25,893 bases of DNA from Gemmatimonadota bacterium (GTDB lineage: Bacteria; GCA-2686955), in assembly GCA_002686955.1 (NCBI GenBank), contig NYZA01000012.1, forward strand, positions 1-25,893, given 5' to 3'. Shown in pieces: positions 5 through 12,460 of this stretch (the stretch's first letter is position 1; every line of letters begins with the position of its first letter). A program made the translations under genes and the position numbers. The notes under the pieces are model-generated. The model saw only the letters and a program-made list of their open reading frames with translations, did not search any database and was not told where the DNA came from.

Positions 5-571
5 ATGTCCGTTCCGGAAAACGATGATTTCTGCCTGCCCTGTCACGAAAGGCTTCACGGAAAACCCGCGGTTTTCGATGTGATCGATATCGACGAGCAC
101 TACGCTGAACGCCGTCTGGAACGGGACGAGGTGGGCTGCATCATCTGCCATCCGCCCCATTGGCCGCGAGTCGAGCCGACCGGCTGCGGGGACAGCGACT
201 GTCACGAGCGCCGCGTCGAGGTGATTCATTTCGCGGAGCATCGATTCGTGACCTGTGTCGCCTGCCACGGCGTCGCTCTACCCGCTCACTCCCGGCTCGT
301 CGATGGCAATCCCTCGGTCGAGATGCCGACGCACGGGCAGAATGATCGATTCTGCGAGAGCTGCCATGCTGAGCCGAAGAGCTCCGAGAAACACTCCAAG
401 ATCTTGGCCAAGATGGAAGCAATGCATTGCATCGAGTGTCATCCTCCTCACGATCCGGTCGGAAGCGCCCGAATCGAGGGCCTGAGGGACGAATCGGATA
501 CCGGGGGGGCGATCGAATTCGAGGACGGGTTCGAAGAGTGGGAGGAGTGGGAGGAGTGGACGGATGAGTAA
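5..571 (+). CDS. Hexahaem c-type cytochrome, electron-transfer subunit (5' end probably missing)
   Basis: The 188 residues seen carry five CxxCH haem-binding motifs (C10-H14, C45-H49, C84-H88, C117-H121, C142-H146) and one wider Cx4CH site (C61-GDSD-C66-H67), so up to six covalent haems. Extra histidines such as those in HPPHWP and HPPHDP could be distal ligands. No signal peptide is visible although such proteins must be exported, and the frame is open to the window edge, so the true start is likely upstream and the ATG at 5 is only the first in view. The C-terminus is acidic with three EEW repeats. It overlaps the ferredoxin gene by 8 bases. By analogy with Dsr, Hmc and Nrf-type modules, it would carry electrons between periplasmic partners and the NrfD subunit. 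The exact complex is unknown. Confidence 0.85.
   Translation: MSVPENDDFCLPCHERLHGKPAVFDVIDIDEHYAERRLERDEVGCIICHPPHWPRVEPTGCGDSDCHERRVEVIHFAEHRFVTCVACHGVALPAHSRLVDGNPSVEMPTHGQNDRFCESCHAEPKSSEKHSKILAKMEAMHCIECHPPHDPVGSARIEGLRDESDTGGAIEFEDGFEEWEEWEEWTDE
533..559 (+). repeat. Three tandem 9-bp units encoding EEW repeats
   Basis: Three consecutive 9-base units (gaagagtgg, then gaggagtgg twice) encode EEW-EEW-EEW at the acidic tail of the cytochrome. They lie 4 to 31 bases before the ATG of the ferredoxin gene and each contains a GGAG or GAAG purine core, so the array also supplies Shine-Dalgarno-like sequence for that start. Confidence 0.7.
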
Positions 572-1376
572 TCCCCGCGCGTCTCGCGGATGCGCCCCAC
601 ATCGACACACGGATCGCCGGGAGTTCATGAAGATCACGGCCCGCACGGTCGCCGCCGGGGTTGTGTCCTACTCTCTCTCGCTGCGCATACCGAAGCTCGC
701 CAAGGGGACCGCGCTAGAAAGCGGTCCATCGGCCGATGCTTTCGAGGAACACTTCTGCAACTTCATCGTGAATACGACGAAGTGTATCGGCTGCGGATCC
801 TGTGTCCGTGCGTGTCGCAATGAGAATCACGTACCGGGTGGTTACTACCGAACCTGGATCGAGCGCTATACGGAGTCCGAGGATCACGAACTTTTCGTTG
901 ACTCTCCCGGCGGCGGCGAAAACGGATTCATGAGTGCCCCGCGCATGAAGGGTCGCAATCCGAAGGCATTCTTCGTGCCCAAGCTCTGCAACCAGTGCGA
1001 GAAGCCGGCCTGCACTCAGGTGTGTCCCGTCAGCGCCACCTACTACACCGATGGAGGAGTGGTCTTGGTGGACAAGGATCGCTGCATGGGCTGCGGGTAC
1101 TGCGTGCAGGCCTGTCCCTACGAGGCTCGATATGTCGACCATGCGGCAGGCACTGTCGACAAATGCACTTGGTGCTACCACCGAATCACGAGAGGCCTCC
1201 CTCCGGCCTGCGTTCTGACCTGTCCCACCGGTGCGCGATCGTTCACCACCCACGTGGAAGGCGAAACCTGCGCCGCGTGTGAGCTCCTGAAATCGGAACG
1301 ATACGATGTATTGAAAGAGGAGCTCGGAACCGACCCCCAGGTCTACTACCTCGGGTTCAATCGAGAGGTTCGCTGA
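564..1376 (+). CDS. Tat-exported ferredoxin with four [4Fe-4S] clusters (DsrO/NrfC/HmcB-like)
   Basis: This 270-residue protein has a twin-arginine signal near the N-terminus (DRREFMK, R18-R19) followed by a weakly hydrophobic stretch. Four cysteine sets bind four [4Fe-4S] clusters: C74/77/80/84, C142/145/150/154, C174/177/180/184 and C201/204/216/220. This is the pattern of the periplasmic iron-sulphur subunits of DsrO, NrfC, HmcB and PsrB type. It would pass electrons between the NrfD-type quinone subunit encoded 2 bases downstream and the multihaem cytochrome upstream. Start at 564 is supported by the overlap with the cytochrome stop and by GGAG-rich sequence just before it. The N-terminal 15 residues are unusual for a Tat signal; a later start would still need to precede R18. 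Family assignment is firm, the physiological partner complex is not. Confidence 0.93.
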   Translation: MSNPRASRGCAPHRHTDRREFMKITARTVAAGVVSYSLSLRIPKLAKGTALESGPSADAFEEHFCNFIVNTTKCIGCGSCVRACRNENHVPGGYYRTWIERYTESEDHELFVDSPGGGENGFMSAPRMKGRNPKAFFVPKLCNQCEKPACTQVCPVSATYYTDGGVVLVDKDRCMGCGYCVQACPYEARYVDHAAGTVDKCTWCYHRITRGLPPACVLTCPTGARSFTTHVEGETCAACELLKSERYDVLKEELGTDPQVYYLGFNREVR

Positions 1377-1378
1377 CC

Positions 1379-2557
1379 ATGGAAGAGATGATCGGCTTCC
1401 ACTATCCGAACGAGCGGATCTACTGGTCATTCATGATCGTCCTCTATCCGTACATCACGGGACTCGTTGCCGGCTCTTTTATCACCTCGTCCCTTTACCA
1501 CGTCTTCGACGTCAGAGCGTTGCGTCCCGTCGCACGGATGAGCCTGCTTGCCGCTCTTTGCTTCCTCGCGTTCGCGACAATGCCCTTGCTCTTGCACTTG
1601 GGGCATCCGGAGCGTGCATTCAACATCATGATCACGCCGAATCGCAGCTCCGCGATGGCGGGCTTCGGTTTCATCTATGTTGCATTTGCAATGATGGTCG
1701 TGGCCGAGCTCTGGTTCGACTATCGTGCCGATCTCATTCGCTGGGGCAATGAAATCGAAAGGGGTTCTCTGATCCGACGCATCTATCGAATGCTCGCCCT
1801 CGGCACAACCGACCTGAGCGTGGAAGCCGTGGCCGTGGACCAAAAGGCGGTCCGTCTTCTCGCGGCCATCGGTATCCCCGCCGCCTGCATCCTAACCGGC
1901 TACGTCGGCTTCATCTTCGGATCGATCAAGGCGAATCACTGGTGGTCGACCGAGCTGATGCCGATCATCTTCATTCTCTCCGCAATCGTGAGCGGAATCG
2001 CGATTCTGACCTTGATGTACATGTTCCTGGCGGTCCGAGGGGCGGTTCCCTACGATGGCGAATGTGTTCGGGCGCTGGCGCGCCATCTCTGGTTCTTCCT
2101 CATCGTGGACGTGACGATCGAGGGACTCGAGTTCTTGAACATGGGATACAAGGGTGTAGAGGGCTGGACGCTAATTCGTGCCCTGATCTTCGAACGTCTG
2201 TTCCCCTCCCTGATCATCGTACAGTTTCTCCTGGGCTCGATCGTTCCGCTGCTTCTGCTGTGGCTTGTCTTGCAACGAAGAATCGCCTTCGGGGCCGGCA
2301 GGGTACTGGTCGCGATCTCGTGCGTGCTGGTCTTGGTGCAGGTGTTCGCCATGCGGTGGAACGTTGTAATCGGCGGTCAGATTCTGTCGAAGAGTCTGCG
2401 CGGATTCCTGCCCTTACACGTGGACTTCTTGGGCCGTGAGGGTGTTCTGCTCGGGCTGGTCGTGCTAGCTCTGCCCTTCGTTCTCTTCGCGCTCATCGCC
2501 CGCTTCTTCCCACCGTGGGAGAGTCACGACAGCGCGTCAGCCCATGCTTCGGGCTGA
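1379..2557 (+). CDS. NrfD/PsrC-family integral membrane quinone-interacting subunit (DsrP/HmcC-like)
   Basis: A 392-residue polytopic membrane protein with roughly ten hydrophobic segments, starting 2 bases after the ferredoxin stop. The N-terminal motif around YPYITGLVAGSF and the late FAMRWNVVIGGQ segment are typical of the NrfD/polysulphide reductase membrane subunit family, in particular the longer DsrP/HmcC type. In known complexes this subunit exchanges electrons with menaquinol and docks the four-cluster ferredoxin. With the two genes before it, it forms a three-subunit cytochrome-ferredoxin-NrfD unit. A catalytic subunit is not in the window and may lie upstream. A hairpin spans the stop codon. 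Whether the module reduces or oxidises quinone, and whether it translocates protons, cannot be read from the sequence. Confidence 0.92.
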   Translation: MEEMIGFHYPNERIYWSFMIVLYPYITGLVAGSFITSSLYHVFDVRALRPVARMSLLAALCFLAFATMPLLLHLGHPERAFNIMITPNRSSAMAGFGFIYVAFAMMVVAELWFDYRADLIRWGNEIERGSLIRRIYRMLALGTTDLSVEAVAVDQKAVRLLAAIGIPAACILTGYVGFIFGSIKANHWWSTELMPIIFILSAIVSGIAILTLMYMFLAVRGAVPYDGECVRALARHLWFFLIVDVTIEGLEFLNMGYKGVEGWTLIRALIFERLFPSLIIVQFLLGSIVPLLLLWLVLQRRIAFGAGRVLVAISCVLVLVQVFAMRWNVVIGGQILSKSLRGFLPLHVDFLGREGVLLGLVVLALPFVLFALIARFFPPWESHDSASAHASG

Positions 2558-3804: not shown

Positions 3805-5730
3805 TCAGATCTTTCCCTTCACCACCGCCTCCGCGCCCCCGGCCAGCACCAGTTCCTGGGCAACGGTCGAGAGGGGCGGAATCGGGAATTGTCGCCTTCT
3901 CCACTCGATCCGGTTCTCGGCGAAATCGACCTTCGCCTCGCCCTCCAACGCGATCGTCGGCGCGTCGCTCAGCTCGCCTCGCTCGCGGATCTCGACGAGC
4001 GCATCGACCAGCGACGGACAGGCGAGGGTGATGAAACCGTTATTGAAGGCGTTGCGCATATAGGTCTGCGAAAAACTGCCCGCGACGACCATGCGTATGC
4101 CCTTGTGAGCGAGAGCCGTGGCCGCCTGCTCGCGCGACGATCCGGTCCCGAAATTGTAGCCACCGACCAATATGTCGCCCTCGCGAGCGATCTCCTGAAA
4201 AGCGGGATCGTAGTTGAGCATCGCCGCCGCGGCCATCTCCTCCGCGCTCAGATCGTCCTTGTAGGTGAAGTCCTTCCCGTAGATCCCGTCGGTGTTCATA
4301 TTGTCTTTGGGGACGAAGAGCAATCGTCCCGCGACACTTTTCGGAAACCCTTCGAGGAAATCGACCGCCTCGCGCGGCGCATCGGCGGCCTCATGGGTCT
4401 CGTAGGAGACAACGATCGGCTCATCGGCGAACTCCTCGGGACCGGTGATATGGCCCGCCAGCGCCGAAGCTGCCACGATGGCGGGACTCGCCAGATAGGC
4501 CCGCGCATCGCGAGAGCCCATTCGCCCTTGGAAGTTTCGATTGGTCGCCGAAATGGCGTTCTCTCCCGGGCCGAGTGTTCCTTCGCCCAACCCGATGCAG
4601 GGTCCGCAGCCCGGAGGGAGCACCTTCGCCCCCGCGCGGACCAGGTCGCCCCAGGCACCGAGGCGCTCCGCCTCCTGCTCCACCTCGCGGCTGGCGGCGG
4701 CCAGGTAGAGCTCCACGCCCGGCGCGACCGAGCGGCCCCGAACCACCTCCGCCGCGTCGACGATGTCTTCGAGACGGCTGTTGACGCAGGAGAGCAGGTA
4801 GGCCTTGTGAACCGGGATCTTCTTCGCCGCCATTTCGGGCAGCGCCGTGATCGCCTTGACCTCGTCGGGTCCCGCGATCTGGGGCACGAGGTGCGCGAGA
4901 TCGATCGTCAGCGTGCGTTTGTAGAACGCGTCTGGATCGGGCTCCACGGTCGTCGCTCGCCACGATCGAATCTGCTCAGCGGAGAATCTCCCGTGTTTCT
5001 CCGCCCGGGCGAGCAGCCACTCCTCGAGCAGATCGTCGAAGGGAAAGCGTCCTACGAGCGCGCCCCATTCGGTGCTCATGTTGGCGATGGTCAGCCGTTG
5101 ATCCATCGAGAGCGAGGCCAACCCGTCCCCCTCGAACTCGATCGCGCAGTTCAGCGCATCGTCGTCGCGGAAGGTCCCGATCAGGGCGATGATCACGTCC
5201 TTCCCCCGAACCCCCCTGCGCAGCCTCCCCTTCAGCACGACCCGCACGACATCGGGCACCTGCCACCAGGTCTCGCCGGTCGCCCAGATCGCCGCCGCGT
5301 CGGTGCGAACCACCGGCGTGCCTACCGCCGCCAACCCACCGTAGATATTGGAATGGGAATCGGAGGCCACGACCATGCTGTCGGGCACGACGTAGCCCTC
5401 CTGGCACATGATCTGGTGCCCGATCCCGCTTCCGGCGGGCCAGAAATCGACATCGTGCGCGCGCGCGAAGCTCTCGATCCGCTCGTACTTCGCGAGATTC
5501 CCCTCGGACCGGTTCTGGATGTCGTGGTCGAGTGTGAATACCGGCTGCCTGGGATCGTGCACCCGCTCGGCGCCGATCGCGCTGAACTTCCCCAGCACCG
5601 CGCCGGTGTTGTCATGGGTCATCACGTGACGTGGGCGAATGGTGACGTAGTCACCGGAGTGGACCAGGCTCGTTTCGGGAAGTCCTACGGAATGGGCCTG
5701 GACGATCTTCTCAACGGCGGTTTGAGACAT
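3805..5730 (-). CDS. Homoaconitase/aconitase-family hydratase, fungal Lys4-like single chain
   Basis: The 641-residue protein fuses the three-domain [4Fe-4S] part and the C-terminal swivel domain of the aconitase superfamily. Cluster cysteines are C315 (SCVNSR), C375 and C378 (PPGCGPCIG). Substrate-site motifs include DSHSN (124-128), NRNFQGRMGS (397-406) and, in the swivel, NFGTGSSREQAATA (about 526-539). Several blocks (IWATGETWWQ, LTIANMSTEWGAL, GKDVIIAL, NFGTGSSREQAATAL) match yeast Lys4 homoaconitase, as far as I recall it, better than standard AcnA or AcnB. The family hydrates and dehydrates citrate/isocitrate or homocitrate/homoisocitrate. Start at 5730 is chosen because a GAGGT ribosome site lies 8 bases before the ATG and the longer upstream extension is unlike the family. 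It is the last gene of the citrate-lyase-like operon, 14 bases after the small membrane protein. The substrate is not settled. Confidence 0.9.
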   Translation of the reverse strand: MSQTAVEKIVQAHSVGLPETSLVHSGDYVTIRPRHVMTHDNTGAVLGKFSAIGAERVHDPRQPVFTLDHDIQNRSEGNLAKYERIESFARAHDVDFWPAGSGIGHQIMCQEGYVVPDSMVVASDSHSNIYGGLAAVGTPVVRTDAAAIWATGETWWQVPDVVRVVLKGRLRRGVRGKDVIIALIGTFRDDDALNCAIEFEGDGLASLSMDQRLTIANMSTEWGALVGRFPFDDLLEEWLLARAEKHGRFSAEQIRSWRATTVEPDPDAFYKRTLTIDLAHLVPQIAGPDEVKAITALPEMAAKKIPVHKAYLLSCVNSRLEDIVDAAEVVRGRSVAPGVELYLAAASREVEQEAERLGAWGDLVRAGAKVLPPGCGPCIGLGEGTLGPGENAISATNRNFQGRMGSRDARAYLASPAIVAASALAGHITGPEEFADEPIVVSYETHEAADAPREAVDFLEGFPKSVAGRLLFVPKDNMNTDGIYGKDFTYKDDLSAEEMAAAAMLNYDPAFQEIAREGDILVGGYNFGTGSSREQAATALAHKGIRMVVAGSFSQTYMRNAFNNGFITLACPSLVDALVEIRERGELSDAPTIALEGEAKVDFAENRIEWRRRQFPIPPLSTVAQELVLAGGAEAVVKGKI

Positions 5731-5744
5731 CGATTTACCTCGAT

Positions 5745-5990
5745 TCAAACGATTCGCTCGCGCGCCCGCGCATACGCCCGCTGCCAGAAAAGAGCGAGCA
5801 GTATGGGGAACGCTATCTCCGGCCATGAACGCACGGAGGAGAACTGAACGATGCTGATCCCCAGACAGATCACCACTCCCGACCCCATCACCACGCGCCG
5901 AAGCCGCGGGTCGGTTTCACAGAGCTCGACTAGAAAGAGCGCGGCTCCCGGCAACGCTCCGCCGAGTAGCAAGGTGTGGATCCAGCTCAT
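5745..5990 (-). CDS. Small three-helix membrane protein, unknown function
   Basis: An 81-residue hydrophobic protein with three likely membrane segments at about residues 5-22, 34-50 and 57-71, a short charged loop (CETDPRLRR) and a basic C-terminal tail (QRAYARARERIV). I recognise no family. Translation probably begins at the ATG at 5990, preceded by GGGAGCAGG; an alternative TTG lies in frame at 6029. It sits 14 bases upstream of the homoaconitase gene on the same strand, so the two are probably co-transcribed and perhaps coupled. Its size and position suggest a membrane accessory, perhaps for transport or for anchoring the enzymes, but this is only inference. The alternative is a non-coding leader, since the evidence is hydrophobicity and context only. 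Confidence 0.55.
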   Translation of the reverse strand: MSWIHTLLLGGALPGAALFLVELCETDPRLRRVVMGSGVVICLGISIVQFSSVRSWPEIAFPILLALFWQRAYARARERIV

Positions 5991-6055
5991 CCGGGCGCCT
6001 GCTCCCATTCCCGGATGCGGTCCGTACAATTGATTGCGGCGCCCTTCCGGCCCTC

Positions 6056-6095
6056 CCGAGAGATCTCTCTCGGCCAGCGCGAGGACAAGTCCTCG
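6056..6095. repeat. Two adjacent short palindromes in the citF-membrane protein gap
   Basis: In the 213-base gap between the CitF-like gene and the small membrane protein, two inverted repeats lie 6 bases apart. The first is CCGAGAGA/TCTCTCGG (6056-6063 and 6066-6073, 2-base centre). The second is CGAGGAC/GTCCTCG (6080-6086 and 6089-6095, 2-base centre). They could be protein-binding sites for a promoter of the downstream gene pair or RNA processing hairpins; the 2-base centres favour DNA sites over RNA hairpins. Confidence 0.4.
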
Positions 6096-6203
6096 TTTTC
6101 GGCGGGGGACCGGGCAGAAGCGCCGCAGCTAGAATCAATATGGCCTCGAATCGCGGCCGAGTCCACAGATTTCGTGCTATTTTTTTTGCGGGACGATCTC
6201 ATC

Positions 6204-7757
6204 CTATTTCACCGCATGAACGCAGTCGATCGTCGTCCCGTCGACCCATTGGATCGCGGCCACGACCTGCTCCGATTGCGCGGGTTTTGCCGGGGGACCG
6301 CCACAGATCCTCTCGACTTCCGCCTTGAGCTCGGCGATCTCGATCAGAGGCAGATCGGAGCCGCGAAGCGCCTCGATGAGATCTTCGCGCCTCGGGTTGA
6401 TGCACAGGCCCCGCTCGGTGGCGATCACGTCGATCAGCTCGCCGGGGCCGCAAAGCGTCGTCACCCGATCGAGCACCACAGGAACACGATTCCGGAACGA
6501 GGGAACGGCCAAGATAGTGCACTTGGAAGCAAGACAGTTCTGCCAGCCGCCGATGCCGTGAAGCAGCCGTCCGTCGGTGTGGGTGACGACATTGGCATTG
6601 AAATCGATATCGACTTCCGTCGCACCCAGTATCACGACGTCGACCATCGAGGCGAAGTTCCCTTTTCCGTGGAAATTGTATGAAGTGAAGGGGCTCGTGT
6701 TCAGATGTCCCGGATTCTCCCGCATCGAGCGCACACCCTCGAGGTCGAAAGTCTGCCCATCGAGGATGTACGGAGTGAGTCCTTCCTCCAACATCTCGAC
6801 GAGGTAACGGTTCGAGCCGCCCCGCACGAAACCGGCCTTCACTCCCGCCTCTCTCATCATCTCTCTCAAGTAGATCCCGAAGGAAAGCGCGGTTCCTCCG
6901 GCGCCGGCCTGGAAAGAAAAACCGTCGCGCATGATGCCCGAATCGCGCACGAAACGAGCGGCGTATTCGGCGATGAGCAACCGGTCGGGACTCTTGGTGA
7001 TCTGGGTCGTGCCCGAGACGATTCTGGACGGATCCCCAACCTTGTCGACCACGACGACGGAATCAACGTTGTTGCCCTGAATCTGCCAGGGGACGCAGGG
7101 GAAGGGAACGAGATTGTCGGTGACGACAATGACATGATCGGCGAAAAGCGAGTCGGCCAGGCCGAAGCCGAGCAGACCGCACGCGCTCGGCCCGCGATCC
7201 CCCGTCGCATTGCCGAAGGGATCGGCCGTTGGCGCCGCCAGGACGGCGATGTCGATCCGCACTTCTCCATCCTGGATCGCCTGCCACCGGCCGCCATGGC
7301 TGCGCAGCACGCCGAGTCCCCGCATCTTCCCGCGGCTGCAGTAGCCCCCGAGCGGACCGTTCATCGAGCCTTCGATATGATGGATGACTCCACTCTCGAG
7401 ATGGTCGATCAGGGGCGCATGACAGGGAAAGCTCGCCGAGGGGAACCATCGGAGATCTTTCACGCCCAGCTCGGCGGCCGCATCGAAAATCGCGCGGGCC
7501 ACGAGATCGCCATTGCGGAAATGATGATGTGTACTGATCGTCATTCCGTCGCGGATTCCCGCCCTTTTCAGCGCATCGTGGATCGAGGAGACGCATTTAT
7601 TGCCGTCAACGGGAAAGTCGGCCGCGGAACGGATCGGCGGACTCCATTTTCGTCCCGAAGGACGCCATGCTCCGACTCCTTGGTAGGGCTTCGTTTCCAG
7701 CTCATTGATGCGGGTCGGAATCAGGCGCCCCGCCGCATTGCGGATCAACTCGCTCAT
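6204..7757 (-). CDS. citF: Citrate lyase alpha subunit-like acyl-ACP:citrate transferase (CitF)
   Basis: A 517-residue protein collinear with CitF of citrate lyase, in which the alpha subunit swaps the acetyl group on the acyl carrier protein for citrate. Family blocks are seen through the whole length: DGMTISTHHHFRNGD near residue 80, SHGGRWQAIQDGE, TADPFGNATG, GDPSRIVSGTTQIT, DGFSFQAGAGGTAL, DIDFNANVVT, GPGELIDVIATERG and a C-terminal TIDCVHAVK like the usual VIDVIRQVK. The ATG at 7757 overlaps the stop of the CitDE gene as ATGA, which fixes the start and indicates coupled translation. It ends with TAG at 6204. No CitC, CitX or CitG (needed to make and load the prosthetic group of known citrate lyases) lies in the window. 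Given its homoaconitase neighbour, homocitrate or another 2-hydroxytricarboxylate is an alternative substrate. Confidence 0.9.
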   Translation of the reverse strand: MSELIRNAAGRLIPTRINELETKPYQGVGAWRPSGRKWSPPIRSAADFPVDGNKCVSSIHDALKRAGIRDGMTISTHHHFRNGDLVARAIFDAAAELGVKDLRWFPSASFPCHAPLIDHLESGVIHHIEGSMNGPLGGYCSRGKMRGLGVLRSHGGRWQAIQDGEVRIDIAVLAAPTADPFGNATGDRGPSACGLLGFGLADSLFADHVIVVTDNLVPFPCVPWQIQGNNVDSVVVVDKVGDPSRIVSGTTQITKSPDRLLIAEYAARFVRDSGIMRDGFSFQAGAGGTALSFGIYLREMMREAGVKAGFVRGGSNRYLVEMLEEGLTPYILDGQTFDLEGVRSMRENPGHLNTSPFTSYNFHGKGNFASMVDVVILGATEVDIDFNANVVTHTDGRLLHGIGGWQNCLASKCTILAVPSFRNRVPVVLDRVTTLCGPGELIDVIATERGLCINPRREDLIEALRGSDLPLIEIAELKAEVERICGGPPAKPAQSEQVVAAIQWVDGTTIDCVHAVK

Positions 7758-8980
7758 TCTTCGTCCGCCGATTCCCAGTCGCCGGCCAATCGCCCCGTCG
7801 CGATCGCCATATCGACTGTCGCCAGCGCCCGCTTGACCACGGGCGGATCGATCATCCTTGTACCGAGGCTCACGACGCCGAGCCCGCGCGCTTCGGCCTT
7901 TCGGAAAGCGCGTACGATCCGGCGGGCCCGATCGACTTCGTTCGCCGCGGGCGCGAGAGCAGCGTGAACGACACCGATCTGTCGGGGATGGATGCAACCC
8001 TTGCCTTCGAAACCTAGCCTTCGCGCTTCATCCACCGATGCCCGCAGTCCTTCTACGTTGCCGACGTCGGAATAGACCGAATCGATCGCCTGAAGCCCGA
8101 ATGCCCGGGCCGCGTTGACGATGGCGCACCGCGCCCACAGGCTTTCCTCACCGCTTTCGGTCCGCTGCACGCCGATGTCCGCCGTGTAGTCCTCGAGGCC
8201 GATCGTCAGTGCCACATTTCTGTCGCTGGCTCCCGCGATCTCGGTGGCGTTGGCGACGCCGCGCGCCGACTCGATGATCGGCATCAAGAAGACCTCGTCG
8301 GCGCTCAGCTCGCGGATCCGTCCGTCGACCGCCTGAACCTCCCCCGCGCTTTCCACCTTCGGGATGAGGATCAGATCGACGCCGTGCGGGGCGATCTGCT
8401 CGAGATCGCTCAGACCCAGCTCACCCTGGTTGATTCGCACCATCCGCTCGGCGCCCATGAAATCGACCTGCCGCAGGGCGTTGCGTACCAGGATCCTCGA
8501 CGCGAGCTTCGCCGCCGGCGCGACCGAATCCTCGAGGTCGAGGATGATGGCGTCGGGCCTATGGAGGCCGGCGTTCAGGAATAGCTTCGGCTGGCTGCCG
8601 GGAAGGTAGAGACGGGAGCGGCGGAAACGATCCCTTCGGGTCGCTCCGCGTGCCGGGTCGTGGATCGGCGGAAGCCAGTCGCCCTTGGTCTCCAGCCCTG
8701 CCTCGCGGATCGCCGCTTCGAGCCTCGCCATCAGCACGAAGGGGACGGCACCGCCATCCTCACAGAGAAGGGCGCCATGCTCGGCACCGAGAGCCGCGCA
8801 CCCTTCTCGCAGAAGCGCGTCGATCGATTCTCCGTAGTACGCCTCTGCGGTGCTCTTCAGCTCGATTTCGAGCCCGCCCTTCTCGGCCGGCTCGAATCGA
8901 ATCCAGCAATCGGAACGAACCCGCGGCCCGCGGCTACCCGCCTCACCGGCGTGCCCGCGGGTTGAGGGATCGTGAGTCAT
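7754..8980 (-). CDS. Citrate lyase gamma-beta fusion (CitD acyl carrier domain + CitE lyase)
   Basis: The 408-residue protein joins two normally separate subunits. Residues about 11-100 resemble CitD, the small acyl carrier protein (DCWIRFEPAEKGGLEIEL, YYGESIDALL, FVLMARLEAAI). Residues about 118-408 are CitE, the lyase that splits citryl-carrier into acetyl-carrier and oxaloacetate: RRSRLYLPGSQP, IILDLEDSV (148-153), RINQ (R182), PKVES (208-211), IIESARGV (236-242), GLEDYTADIG and GKGCIHPRQI. In CitD the prosthetic group sits on a serine in LES-S/G-D; here the aligned position appears to be R22 with a serine next to it (VRSD, S23). Start at 8980 has AAGGA 7 bases upstream. It is the first gene of the operon and overlaps citF by 4 bases. 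A fused carrier would act in the cytoplasm as part of a citrate-lyase-like complex. Confidence 0.87.
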   Translation of the reverse strand: MTHDPSTRGHAGEAGSRGPRVRSDCWIRFEPAEKGGLEIELKSTAEAYYGESIDALLREGCAALGAEHGALLCEDGGAVPFVLMARLEAAIREAGLETKGDWLPPIHDPARGATRRDRFRRSRLYLPGSQPKLFLNAGLHRPDAIILDLEDSVAPAAKLASRILVRNALRQVDFMGAERMVRINQGELGLSDLEQIAPHGVDLILIPKVESAGEVQAVDGRIRELSADEVFLMPIIESARGVANATEIAGASDRNVALTIGLEDYTADIGVQRTESGEESLWARCAIVNAARAFGLQAIDSVYSDVGNVEGLRASVDEARRLGFEGKGCIHPRQIGVVHAALAPAANEVDRARRIVRAFRKAEARGLGVVSLGTRMIDPPVVKRALATVDMAIATGRLAGDWESADEE

Positions 8981-9113: not shown

Positions 9114-10673
9114 ATGAATCCTCCGATCACCGCCACCCACGTCTACCGCTACTTGCTTTGCGAGCACACGGCGACGCTCGCCTTTCATGGGGACCCCGCT
9201 CGTAGCGTGGCGCCGCACGAGGGGCTCAGGCTCCTGCTCGAGCTGGGGAATCGTCACGAAGCGAGCTGGGTGGCCGAGCATTGCGCCGATTGGGCCACGC
9301 CGAGCTATCCCGAGAGGGACTGGGCGGCGGGCCTGGCAGCGACACTCGATCTGATGCGCTCGGGCGTGTCCGGCGTACTGCAAGGTGTGTTGATCGACGT
9401 CGATCGCGTGGGAAAACCGGATCTATTGCGCCGAGAGGAGGGACCAAGCGATCTCGGAGATCACCATTACATTGCCGGCGACGTGAAGAGCAGCGCCGAG
9501 CCGCACACGGAGCAAGTGATGCAGGTGCTCTTCTATGCGCGCTTGCTGGAATTGCTGCAAGGTCGCTTGCCTTCCTACGGCTACTTGATCATGGCGGATG
9601 GGCGCGAGGAGCGCTTCGATGTCACGTCGCTCCTGCCGATCTTCGACGAGGTATTGCGTGAGATACGGCAGATCCGGGACAGCGGCCGGCAGACAAAGCT
9701 ACACCTCTCACACCAGTGCGGCGCCTGTGGATGGCGTGTGTTCTGTCGCGATCTGGCGCAAGAAAAGAAGGACCTATCGTTGATCCCGGGCGTCGGCCGC
9801 GGCACGGCCGACCTGCTTCGCCAAACTGGAATCGCCACCGTGCGGGATCTGGCGACACTTTCGCTCGAGCAGGGCCGAAAGTTGGCGGAAGCGGAGGTGC
9901 TGGGCATCGAGGTGCTCGGACCGTTGCGAAGGCGGGCGCGGGCGGTCGAGCGCGGGGAGCCAACGATCCTCTCCGCGCCGGAGGTGCCGCCGCCGCCCGA
10001 GGGGATCTATGTCGTCGCCTCGAGCGACCCGCGTCGCAATGGTGGGGCTTTTCTTTACGCCATTCTCGAAATAGACCGATCGGGCAAGGAGCGCCGCGAA
10101 ACCCTGTACGCGAAGACTCCGGCGGAAGAGCGCGAGCTCTGGCACCGTTTCCTGGAGCGGATCACGGCATCGAAAAAAGGAAATCGACGTGAGAGGTTTA
10201 GCGGCATTCCAATCTTCCACTCCGGCGGGCTGGCTCCCGCGACCGTAGAGGCGATCCAGAGCGCGCACGGTGGCGATCCGATCGCATTCGAACGCGTGCA
10301 CGATGAGGGGGTGGACTTATCGCGCATGCTCTTGCGATCGATCGCGGTCCCCACGCCCTCGGCGAGTCTTCGGGCCTACACATCTTTTTCAGGTGGCGTC
10401 GGAGCCGACGGCGAGGGAATAGGGGCAGGCCAGCCGGGGGGCTCGGGCTTCGAAGCACGCTACGGAGGACCGTTCGGGCACTACTACCCCTGGCACGAGC
10501 GTTTCACCGCCACTGGCGACGAAGCTTGGAGGAGGAAGATCCTGGCAGCCGCCGAGCTAGAGATCGAGGCACTCCGCTCGTTGAGACTCAGGCTGCACGA
10601 GGCGGCAAAAAGGGCGGAACGAAAGCCCGCGACAACGACCCGCGGGCGGCGGACGAGGAATGGGACGCGATGA
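9114..10673 (+). CDS. Cas4/RecB-like PD-(D/E)xK nuclease with HhH and degenerate RNase H-like domain (TM0106-type)
   Basis: The 519-residue protein matches the layout of TM0106-type RecB-family nucleases. Residues 1-215 form a Cas4-like nuclease: H48 in GNRHEASW, D103 in KPDLL, D123-x-K125 in GDVKSS, and four cysteines (C16; C202, C205, C211) placed like a Cas4/AddB iron-sulphur cluster. Residues about 222-250 are a helix-hairpin-helix (IPGVGRGTADLL). Residues about 295-495 correspond to the YprB-like RNase H-fold exonuclease, but the expected DxE acid pair reads VVASSDP and the late DD motif reads ELE, so this part is probably inactive. The gene overlaps the helicase start as ATGA. Homologues are often one long nuclease-helicase polypeptide; here they are two genes. 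Role in repair or defence is inferred, not shown. Confidence 0.85.
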   Translation: MNPPITATHVYRYLLCEHTATLAFHGDPARSVAPHEGLRLLLELGNRHEASWVAEHCADWATPSYPERDWAAGLAATLDLMRSGVSGVLQGVLIDVDRVGKPDLLRREEGPSDLGDHHYIAGDVKSSAEPHTEQVMQVLFYARLLELLQGRLPSYGYLIMADGREERFDVTSLLPIFDEVLREIRQIRDSGRQTKLHLSHQCGACGWRVFCRDLAQEKKDLSLIPGVGRGTADLLRQTGIATVRDLATLSLEQGRKLAEAEVLGIEVLGPLRRRARAVERGEPTILSAPEVPPPPEGIYVVASSDPRRNGGAFLYAILEIDRSGKERRETLYAKTPAEERELWHRFLERITASKKGNRRERFSGIPIFHSGGLAPATVEAIQSAHGGDPIAFERVHDEGVDLSRMLLRSIAVPTPSASLRAYTSFSGGVGADGEGIGAGQPGGSGFEARYGGPFGHYYPWHERFTATGDEAWRRKILAAAELEIEALRSLRLRLHEAAKRAERKPATTTRGRRTRNGTR

Positions 10674-12460
10674 GGGAGCCGATCGTTCGATTCCTGGAGC
10701 GGGGCCGGCGAGCGGAGCGCCGTGATCTCAGAGATCTGCACCTCAAACCGGTCGAGGAACGGGTGGCCGATGGCTCGGCGATCGCCGGGTTGCGCCGGAT
10801 CGAGCAGCGGGGGGACGCCGCGGTCTATCGGATCCCCGGAACCGCCACGAAGCTCCGGCCGGGGGACGCCTGCTGGCTCTCGTCAGGAGCCGAGATCACA
10901 TCGGGTCGGCCGGTTGAGATCGAGGAGATCGATCTGGGCGCTGGCGTCCTGGTGCTCCGTCCCGATCGCTTCGCCGACGCGTCGGGCCCCCCGCCGGAAG
11001 GGGGCGTGCTCGACCGCCGCAATCTCGACCTGACCGACCATCTGGTGCGAGGACTGGAGCCGATCTTCGACGACGAAAGGGGACGCCTCGCCGGTGCGGA
11101 CTGGGTGCGCCGGGCGGTAGAGGGCGAGGCCGAATTGGGTCCCCGGAACGACAGGCTTGCGCGGGCGAAAGAGGCAGTGGAGGCGGATGCACTGACCGAG
11201 AGCCAACGAGAGGCGTTCTCCGCCGCCGTCGCCGCCCGGGAGCTGGCGCTCGTGCAAGGACCACCCGGCACCGGCAAGACACGGGTCGCCGCCGCGGTGG
11301 TCCTGGAGGCACTTCGGCACGGCGAGAAGGTGCTCGTGTCGGCGCTCACGCATCGTGCGATCAACAACGTGCTCGCCGCCGTCGCCACACTCGGAGAGAA
11401 GAGCCGCGGCCACAGGGTTTTCAAAATCGGTCGCCCGCATCAGGGCGCTGAGCTCCGAGCGCTCGGGATCGAAAGCCGCACCCGCCTGCAAAAAGGTGCA
11501 GTCCTCCCGGGCGAGGGCATGGTCGTCGGCGCGACCACCTTCGGGGCGGTGAAGCTGCGACGCGATTACTCCCCCTTCGATCTGGTCCTCCTGGACGAAG
11601 CGGGTCAGGTGCCGATCCCACACGCAATGTCGGCCTTCGCGGGAGGGCTGCGCGGTGTCGTCGTGGGTGACCATCGACAGCTCGGCCCGGTCGTGGCGGG
11701 GGGGGGAACGGGCGATCCGATGGAGCGCTCGATCTTCGAGCATCTGGCGGAACGCTACCGCGGCCGGATCCATCTCTTGCGAGAAAGCTGGCGAATGAAT
11801 GCAGGAATCTGTCGTTTTTCCAGCCGCTTTTTCTACGAGGACGCCGTCGTACCCCACAAGAGCGCGGCCGACCGGCGCCTCCAACTGGACGAGGGTGGTC
11901 AGTACCGCGCGATTCTCGATCCGGAGAAAGCCTCGGTCTGGGTCGCGGTCGATCACCTGGCCCGCCGCAACCACTCTCGCGAAGAGGCGCGGGTCGTCGC
12001 GGCGCTCGTGCGCGAGCTCGTCTCCCATCACGGAGTCCCGCCCGCGGAGATCGCCGTCGTGAGCCCCTTTCGAGCCCACGCCGGCGCTGTGTCGCATGAG
12101 CTCGCCCGCGCGATTCCCGAGGCCGCCGGTGCCCTGATCGAGGGACTCGTGGTCGACACGGCCGAGCGGATTCAGGGACAGGAACGCGAGGTCGTTCTCT
12201 ACACCTTCGGCTCCTCCGACCGCGACTACCTGTCACGCAACGCGGAGTTCCTCTTCGACCCGGGACGTCTGAACGTGGCCCTCACGCGCGCCCGAACCAA
12301 GCGGATCATCATCGGCTCTCCCGAAGTGGCTCGGGCCCGTCCACGCAAGTTGGAGGCACTGCGGCGGGCAGCGCTCGTTCAGGCTCTCTGGAGCGAGCAC
12401 ATTCCGATCGAGCAGGCGACTCCGGAATGCGATACGATTCGCGTGCGCTGGGAGGAGTGA
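10670..12460 (+). CDS. SF1B helicase, Upf1/Dna2-like (AAA_11/AAA_12)
   Basis: A 596-residue helicase. Walker A GPPGTGKTR lies at about 197-205, Walker B LVLLDEAG at about 305-312, motif III GDHRQLGPV at about 333-341, a QGQE motif near 502-505 and motif VI NVALTRAR at 535-542. The region before residue 170 is an OB/beta-barrel-like segment (RPGDACWLSS, ITSGRPVEIEEID), as in Upf1/IGHMBP2 proteins. The ATG at 10670 shares ATGA with the nuclease stop, so translation is coupled; the longer frame from 10526 runs inside the nuclease gene and is rejected. Together the two proteins reproduce the nuclease-helicase pairing of Dna2 and of TM0106 fusions: ATP-driven unwinding plus single-strand cleavage. 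The substrate could be DNA or RNA-DNA; this is inference. Confidence 0.92.
   Translation: MREPIVRFLERGRRAERRDLRDLHLKPVEERVADGSAIAGLRRIEQRGDAAVYRIPGTATKLRPGDACWLSSGAEITSGRPVEIEEIDLGAGVLVLRPDRFADASGPPPEGGVLDRRNLDLTDHLVRGLEPIFDDERGRLAGADWVRRAVEGEAELGPRNDRLARAKEAVEADALTESQREAFSAAVAARELALVQGPPGTGKTRVAAAVVLEALRHGEKVLVSALTHRAINNVLAAVATLGEKSRGHRVFKIGRPHQGAELRALGIESRTRLQKGAVLPGEGMVVGATTFGAVKLRRDYSPFDLVLLDEAGQVPIPHAMSAFAGGLRGVVVGDHRQLGPVVAGGGTGDPMERSIFEHLAERYRGRIHLLRESWRMNAGICRFSSRFFYEDAVVPHKSAADRRLQLDEGGQYRAILDPEKASVWVAVDHLARRNHSREEARVVAALVRELVSHHGVPPAEIAVVSPFRAHAGAVSHELARAIPEAAGALIEGLVVDTAERIQGQEREVVLYTFGSSDRDYLSRNAEFLFDPGRLNVALTRARTKRIIIGSPEVARARPRKLEALRRAALVQALWSEHIPIEQATPECDTIRVRWEE

What the first reader, a model, noticed from the sequence alone, without database searches (positions are those of the whole stretch)
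3805..8980. Citrate-lyase-like subunits in one operon with a fungal-type homoaconitase
Seen: CitDE fusion, CitF, a small membrane protein and a Lys4-like homoaconitase are all on the minus strand with overlaps of 4 and spacing of 14 bases within two pairs. Known: citrate lyase splits citrate to acetate and oxaloacetate; homoaconitase interconverts homocitrate and homoisocitrate in fungal lysine synthesis. Inferred: the operon may cleave homocitrate (to acetate and 2-oxoglutarate) or run a citrate/isocitrate cleavage cycle in either direction. Homocitrate synthase and homoisocitrate dehydrogenase are not here. A homoaconitase of this type beside lyase subunits is, to my knowledge, not a described pathway.
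Basis: partly seen in the sequence, partly recalled or inferred. Interest (0 to 1): 0.78.

Follow-up and report, generated by a model that had tools for sequence, protein, structure and literature searches.

The report
Citrate-lyase-like operon with fungal-type homoaconitase
A bacterial operon joins a citrate-lyase-like enzyme to a homoaconitase of the fungal lysine pathway; relatives across many phyla carry a matching homoisocitrate dehydrogenase but none of the genes that activate true citrate lyase, so it looks like an undescribed homocitrate/2-oxoadipate pathway still untested at the bench.

Summary
In detail: CitD-CitE fusion, CitF, a small ORF and a 641-aa Lys4-type homoaconitase lie on the minus strand at 3805-8980. 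The same genes recur in at least 80 genomes of many phyla, often with two more: a dehydrogenase carrying the substrate motif of fungal homoisocitrate dehydrogenase (S-P-I-V, 31/31; isocitrate dehydrogenases have S-[LI]-N-V, 13/13) and a MmgE/PrpD-family protein. In 22 genomes examined, CitG and CitX are absent and CitC shows only weak partial matches; 9 lack any HMGL-family gene, hence any known homocitrate synthase; 16 also hold citrate synthase, a canonical aconitase and a canonical isocitrate dehydrogenase, the window's genome among them. In one Marinimicrobia genome the module shares a same-strand gene run with 2-oxoacid dehydrogenase E1/E2 genes and glutaryl-CoA dehydrogenase. Best reading: a homocitrate/2-oxoadipate module in which CitDE-CitF, probably on CoA thioesters, splits homocitrate to 2-oxoglutarate and acetate. 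Substrate is well supported by sequence, direction is not, and activity is untested. No paper found describes it.

The parts
7754..8980 (-). CitDE: N-terminal CitD/MdcC-type acyl-carrier-like domain (residues ~10-95) fused to a CitE/CoA-lyase TIM barrel (residues ~115-397)
   Evidence: PF06857, PF03328, TIGR01588 below cut-off; AlphaFold model pLDDT 94.3; nearest solved folds malyl-CoA lyase, CLYBL, CitE; (R/K/S)SD motif in 67 of 69 relatives with a readable N-terminus
6204..7757 (-). CitF: citrate-lyase alpha-type CoA/ACP transferase, 517 aa
   Evidence: PF04223 1.5e-127; TIGR01584 477.7 bits against cut-off 501.5; nearest solved structures 2hj0 and 1xr4; 38% identical to E. coli CitF
5745..6008 (-). 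small putative membrane ORF (87 aa from ATG 6008; 94 aa from TTG 6029), no known family
   Evidence: open frame, GC3 0.74, stop 14 bases before the hydratase start; no relatives; may not be a gene
3805..5730 (-). HYD: Lys4/TIGR00139-type homoaconitase, 641 aa, swivel domain fused at the C-terminus
   Evidence: PF00330 + PF00694; TIGR00139 725 bits, cut-off 530; nearest solved sequence homoaconitase large subunit 4kp2; clade of 30 rows, support 100

Best explanation
The operon encodes part of a homocitrate/2-oxoadipate module. With a homoisocitrate dehydrogenase (in this genome at G000:C191) and, in most relatives, a MmgE/PrpD-type dehydratase, it interconverts 2-oxoadipate + CO2 with homoisocitrate (dehydrogenase), cis-homoaconitate (Lys4-type HYD) and homocitrate (PrpD-type protein or an aconitase). 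CitF moves the CoA (or carrier thiol) from an acetyl thioester to homocitrate, and the CitE domain splits homocitryl thioester into 2-oxoglutarate and the acetyl thioester; net homocitrate -> 2-oxoglutarate + acetate. I think cleavage, that is disposal of 2-oxoadipate (for example from lysine), is the likelier direction, and that free CoA thioesters are used because the prosthetic-group genes are missing. Shown: gene content, family membership, motifs, operon structure, absences within these assemblies. Inferred: substrate, direction, CoA dependence, lysine as source.
For: HYD passes the homoaconitase equivalog cut-off and is not an aconitase by tree. The partner dehydrogenase family is present in all 22 genomes; its substrate segment matches S. 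pombe homoisocitrate DH best; S-P-I-V in 31/31, against S-[LI]-N-V in 13/13 isocitrate DHs and neither in LeuB. 16/22 genomes also have citrate synthase, a canonical aconitase and a canonical isocitrate DH, so the module is a second set. 9/22 have no HMGL-family gene, so no known homocitrate synthase. G011: E1 - CitDE - CitF - HD - HYD - dehydrogenase - PrpD - glutaryl-CoA DH - CDF - E2 - LipA on one strand. GCDH at 54-65% identity in 16/22. No CitG or CitX in 22, only weak partial CitC hits; nearest folds of the CitE domain include CoA-dependent lyases. Lys4-type enzymes do only homoaconitate<->homoisocitrate and need a partner dehydratase (PMC3556520), which would explain the PrpD-type gene.
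Against: No biochemical data. In the window's genome no PrpD-type protein and no GCDH were found, though the assembly is 84.5% complete. Reductive carboxylation of 2-oxoadipate is the uphill direction of a homoisocitrate dehydrogenase. No lysine-to-2-oxoadipate genes were tested or seen next to the module or next to GCDH. In G014 a citrate synthase gene sits beside the module. G019 lacks citrate synthase and canonical isocitrate DH, so there the module could serve citrate. The near-invariant Ser of the CitD domain hints at a bound prosthetic group after all.
Confidence: 0.42

Rival explanations
1. Same substrates, opposite direction: CitDE-CitF acts in condensation, making homocitrate from 2-oxoglutarate and an acetyl unit; HYD, PrpD-type protein and dehydrogenase make 2-oxoadipate, which goes through 2-oxoadipate dehydrogenase and glutaryl-CoA dehydrogenase to crotonyl-CoA. 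This would be an oxidative by-pass of the second half of the TCA cycle, or a non-orthologous homocitrate synthase.
For: In G011 the genes form one run that reads as a linear pathway from CitDE-CitF to E1/E2 and GCDH; no homocitrate synthase in 9/22 genomes; HICDH, 2-oxoacid DH and GCDH steps are decarboxylating and could pull the reaction.
Against: Citrate lyases work in cleavage in vivo (established knowledge); condensation from free acetate has an unfavourable equilibrium; 6/22 genomes including the window's have no detected GCDH.
Confidence: 0.18
2. A citrate/isocitrate module: an ordinary (though divergent) citrate lyase with an alternative aconitase and isocitrate dehydrogenase, used for citrate breakdown or a reverse-TCA segment.
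For: Families are homologous to citrate lyase, aconitase and isocitrate DH; a citrate synthase gene lies beside the module in G014; Marinimicrobia 'citrate lyase' has been read as reverse TCA (PMC5688066); G019 lacks citrate synthase.
Against: CitG and CitX absent and CitC only weak partial hits in 22 genomes; CitD S-G-D site altered; CitF, CitE and CitD all score below their equivalog cut-offs; canonical CS, aconitase and IDH coexist in 16/22; SPIV motif unlike isocitrate DH; homoaconitase rather than aconitase models hit.
Confidence: 0.22
3. A chain-shortening module for another 2-substituted malate, e.g. citramalate (2-oxobutyrate -> pyruvate + acetate) or 2-isopropylmalate.
For: CitE-type lyases and LeuCD-type hydratases cover such substrates; citramalyl-CoA lyases are near neighbours of the CitE fold; three genomes use a LeuCD/HacA-type hydratase instead of HYD.
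Against: HYD and the dehydrogenase resemble the tricarboxylate C7 enzymes, not IPMI/LeuB. 2-Methylcitrate is unlikely for the full module since 2-methylisocitrate is a tertiary alcohol that a dehydrogenase cannot oxidise (established chemistry).
Confidence: 0.1

Closest known systems
Citrate lyase operon citCDEFXG(T) (E. coli, Klebsiella)
   Same: CitD-, CitE- and CitF-type domains in an operon; E. coli CitF 38%, CitE 39%, CitD 28% identical
   Different: CitD fused to CitE; S-G-D site replaced by (R/K)SD; CitX and CitG not found and no credible CitC in 22 genomes; paired with homoaconitase, HICDH-like and PrpD-like genes rather than with a citrate transporter
Upper alpha-aminoadipate pathway of fungi (Lys20/21, Lys4, Lys12)
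   Same: Lys4-type homoaconitase and a dehydrogenase with the SPIV segment of S. pombe homoisocitrate DH; need for a separate homocitrate dehydratase (PMC3556520)
   Different: No homocitrate synthase in 9/22 genomes; a lyase in its place; dehydratase role probably filled by a PrpD-family protein; bacterial
Thermus/methanogen homoaconitase pathways (HacAB, AksDEF)
   Same: Homologous steps and enzyme superfamilies
   Different: Two-subunit HacAB against one fused Lys4-like chain; HICDH there lacks SPIV (Thermus); homocitrate synthase is part of those pathways
CoA-dependent lyase pathways: itaconate (RipABC), citramalyl-CoA, malyl-CoA lyases
   Same: CitE-fold lyase on CoA thioesters, with a CoA transferase in the itaconate route
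   Different: Different transferase family (CitF) and different partner enzymes; a CitD domain is retained

Membership tests
Citrate lyase (CitDEF, EC 4.1.3.6) | CitF alpha subunit at equivalog level (TIGR01584) | tested here: not met
   477.7 bits, cut-off 501.45; PF04223 clearly met
Citrate lyase (CitDEF, EC 4.1.3.6) | CitE and CitD at equivalog level (TIGR01588, TIGR01608) | tested here: not met
   254.8 against 443.4 and 46.1 against 63.5 bits
Citrate lyase (CitDEF, EC 4.1.3.6) | CitC, CitX, CitG for acetylation and prosthetic group | tested here: not met
   CitG 0/22, CitX 0/22; CitC 8 weak partial hits (best 1.2e-6), none in the window genome; assemblies are incomplete drafts
Citrate lyase (CitDEF, EC 4.1.3.6) | S-G-D prosthetic-group site in CitD | tested here: not met
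   (R/K/S)SD in 67 relatives, N or G at the Ser in two
Citrate lyase (CitDEF, EC 4.1.3.6) | Cleavage of citrate | not testable with these tools
   needs enzyme assay
Homoaconitase, Lys4 type (TIGR00139) | Equivalog HMM above cut-off | tested here: met
   725.4 bits, cut-off 529.9; a relative scores 892.5
Homoaconitase, Lys4 type (TIGR00139) | Separate clade from true aconitases | tested here: met
   tree, support 100; fungal sequences could not be included
Homoaconitase, Lys4 type (TIGR00139) | Homoaconitate <-> homoisocitrate activity | not testable with these tools
   needs enzyme assay
Aconitase (AcnA/AcnB/mitochondrial) | Equivalog HMMs above cut-off | tested here: not met
   AcnA 133 against 945, mitochondrial 185 against 825, AcnB 69 against 1287 bits
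Homoisocitrate dehydrogenase (partner gene G000:C191, not in window) | Fungal HICDH substrate segment S-P-I-V-x-[LM]-R | tested here: met
   31/31 family members; top match of the segment is 3ty3
Homoisocitrate dehydrogenase (partner gene G000:C191, not in window) | NCBIfam HICDH equivalogs (AksF etc.) | tested here: not met
   272 and 368 bits against 540 for two relatives; those models are methanogen-specific
Alpha-aminoadipate lysine biosynthesis | Homocitrate synthase present | tested here: not met
   no HMGL-family gene in 9/22 genomes; the window genome has two HMGL genes, both below homocitrate-synthase cut-offs
Lysine catabolism via 2-oxoadipate | Genes from lysine to 2-oxoadipate | not tested

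The most novel reading that the evidence does not exclude
A widespread, undescribed bacterial pathway splits homocitrate with a CoA-using citrate-lyase homologue and runs the upper alpha-aminoadipate pathway backwards, turning 2-oxoadipate + CO2 into 2-oxoglutarate + acetate, a GCDH-independent fate for lysine carbon; several 'citrate lyase' annotations taken as reverse-TCA evidence would be misread.
Probability: 0.33. Interest if true: 0.85.

Novelty: new variant of a known kind. Interest (0 to 1): 0.7.

Why it matters
If right, a citrate-lyase-type complex has been repurposed for homocitrate and works without the CitCXG maturation genes, and fungal-type homoaconitase and homoisocitrate dehydrogenase occur across many uncultured phyla outside lysine biosynthesis. 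It would give a new route between 2-oxoadipate and 2-oxoglutarate + acetate. It would also warn against reading such genes as citrate lyase for reverse-TCA autotrophy, as has been done on citrate lyase genes in Marinimicrobia (PMC5688066; whether that study's gene is this one was not checked).

Tried and rejected
Reading HYD as the TCA aconitase: rejected, AcnB is present and the tree separates them. 2-Methylcitrate cycle: the dehydrogenase has no role there. A regular sigma-70 promoter or terminator between the gene pairs: nothing useful. Phylum-wide co-occurrence test: only two genomes of the phylum are held, and the other lacks a strong HYD match, so there is no control for how often the module's genes occur apart. 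GCDH neighbourhoods as a clue to lysine catabolism: housekeeping or unrelated genes only. Paper searches for homocitrate lyase, homoaconitate with citrate lyase, and homoisocitrate dehydrogenase with lysine degradation: none. Fold searches of the CitDE model matched only the CitE domain; the CitD domain was barely tested.
Full report
1. Observation. Pfam and NCBIfam support CitF, CitE, a CitD/MdcC-type domain and an aconitase-family protein that passes the TIGR00139 homoaconitase cut-off (725 against 530 bits). CitF, CitE and CitD score below their citrate-lyase equivalog cut-offs. The small ORF has coding-like GC3 but no relatives and may not be a gene.

2. It is a conserved module. A scan of genome contigs found 545 relatives of CitF; the best 80 (67-84% identical) come from Planctomycetota, Bacteroidota, Ignavibacteriota, Marinimicrobia, Calditrichota, Krumholzibacteriota, Aminicenantes, Acidobacteria and others. 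For comparison, E. coli CitF is 38% identical. CitDE lies next to CitF in most loci; an aconitase-family gene is near and on the same strand in all 25 loci where one is seen. Clustering the neighbours gave further recurrent genes, all on the CitF strand: C2, a ~395-aa member of the Iso_dh family (23 loci); C4, a ~477-aa MmgE/PrpD-family protein (20 loci); C5, a ~180-aa HD-domain protein (18 loci).

3. The dehydrogenase. C2 falls under the HICDH/IDH models without reaching a cut-off. With only the substrate-recognition segment of the window genome's own copy (G000:C191) as query, the best solved structure is S. pombe homoisocitrate dehydrogenase 3ty3, sharing YSSPIV-LR (that 3ty3 is the S. pombe enzyme is from my own knowledge). 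S-P-I-V is present in 31 of 31 C2 proteins; the 13 isocitrate dehydrogenase rows from these genomes and E. coli have S-[LI]-N-V; LeuB proteins have neither. 17 members are aligned.

4. Genome context. In 22 genomes (the window's and 21 chosen from the CitF loci, so not a random sample) the C2 family is in all 22 and HYD in 19; the other three carry a LeuCD/HacA-type hydratase instead, beside C2 in two of them. Citrate synthase is in 21, a canonical aconitase in 19 and a canonical isocitrate dehydrogenase in 17, counting monomeric enzymes; all three in 16. The window's genome has citrate synthase, AcnB and monomeric isocitrate DH. So HYD and C2 are a second, parallel set. Nine genomes have no HMGL-family gene at all, so no known homocitrate synthase. 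CitG and CitX were not found in any; CitC gave only weak partial matches, which I take for related nucleotidyltransferases. MmgE/PrpD-family proteins are in 16 genomes, not in the window's. These are draft assemblies; the window's is 84.5% complete, so single absences are weak while repeated ones are stronger.

5. The most telling neighbourhood. In G011 (Marinimicrobia) one strand carries, in order: a 664-aa 2-oxoacid dehydrogenase E1, CitDE, CitF, HD protein, HYD, C2, C4, an acyl-CoA dehydrogenase whose best solved matches are glutaryl-CoA dehydrogenases (E 3e-137 against 5e-83 for the next kind), a cation-efflux protein, a 2-oxoglutarate-DH-like E2 and lipoyl synthase. 2-Oxoadipate, the product of homoisocitrate dehydrogenase, is the intermediate that ties these together. 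GCDH at 54-65% identity is in 16 of 22 genomes, clearly apart from other acyl-CoA dehydrogenases at 38% or less, but it is not seen in the window's genome or five others. Three Marinimicrobia-type loci have GCDH in the cluster.

6. The carrier domain. The CitD-like domain keeps a nearly invariant (R/K/S)-S-D in place of the S-G-D site of E. coli CitD (67 of 69 readable; N or G at the Ser in two). With CitX and CitG missing, I think the lyase acts on CoA thioesters. The AlphaFold model (pLDDT 94.3) has a CitE domain nearest to CoA-dependent malyl-CoA lyases and CLYBL as well as CitE, which fits but does not prove this.

7. How it would work. CitF: acetyl-CoA + homocitrate -> homocitryl-CoA + acetate; CitE: homocitryl-CoA -> 2-oxoglutarate + acetyl-CoA. 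HYD: homoisocitrate <-> cis-homoaconitate. Fungal Lys4 enzymes do only this half and need an aconitase for homocitrate <-> homoaconitate (PMC3556520); the PrpD-type protein is the obvious candidate for that step where present, and AcnB in the window's genome. From established stereochemistry, a si-type lyase would act on (S)-homocitrate, and PrpD acts on the corresponding (propionyl-derived) arm of methylcitrate, so the two would fit each other; this is reasoning, not a test. C4 is a family of its own: its catalytic-type residues are conserved and its nearest solved relative is cis-aconitate decarboxylase at low similarity, so decarboxylation is not excluded.

8. Direction. For cleavage: lyases of this kind cleave in vivo; genomes without GCDH still have the module. 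For synthesis: the G011 gene order reads as a linear path from CitDE-CitF to crotonyl-CoA, and the decarboxylating steps would pull it. I give cleavage the edge. The supply of 2-oxoadipate (lysine is the obvious one) was not tested.

9. Known or new. No paper in the library mentions homocitrate lyase or combines homoaconitate with citrate lyase; the library is open-access only. One study took citrate lyase in a Marinimicrobia clade as evidence of reverse TCA (PMC5688066); I did not check which gene it meant. All enzyme families are known; the combination and proposed reaction are not, hence 'new variant of a known kind'.

Noticed in passing
window 5-2557 (+): Partial respiratory module: cytochrome c3-like multihaem protein, ferredoxin-type subunit of the TtrB/DsrO kind, NrfD/PsrC membrane subunit; it may continue outside the window.
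   Followed up: partly
window 9114-12460 (+): TM0106-family RecB-like nuclease (TIGR03491) overlapping an IGHMBP2-type helicase; the helicase also matches MkoA and other defence models partially. Could be a nuclease-helicase pair.
   Followed up: partly
L078:2373-2915, L213:12878-13405, L204:131-682, L205:8482-9054, L209:1694-2230 and others: A ~180-aa HD-domain protein (C5) travels with the hydratase even when CitDEF is elsewhere or the hydratase is the LeuCD type; function unknown.
   Followed up: partly
L186 (G000:C76): NifV/homocitrate-synthase-like gene next to a LeuC-like gene, an apparent radical-SAM protein and an oxidoreductase; looks like a biosynthetic cluster for a chain-extended amino acid.
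   Followed up: no
L189:5720-7525 and L190:3809-5782 (G000:C134 and C146): Two further fused aconitase-family hydratases (602 and 658 aa) in the same genome, of unknown substrate; the first groups with the hydratases that replace HYD in G019, G020 and others.
   Followed up: partly
L070:1-1404: A citrate synthase (TIGR01798 above cut-off) upstream of the module in an Acidobacteria genome that has a second copy elsewhere.
   Followed up: no
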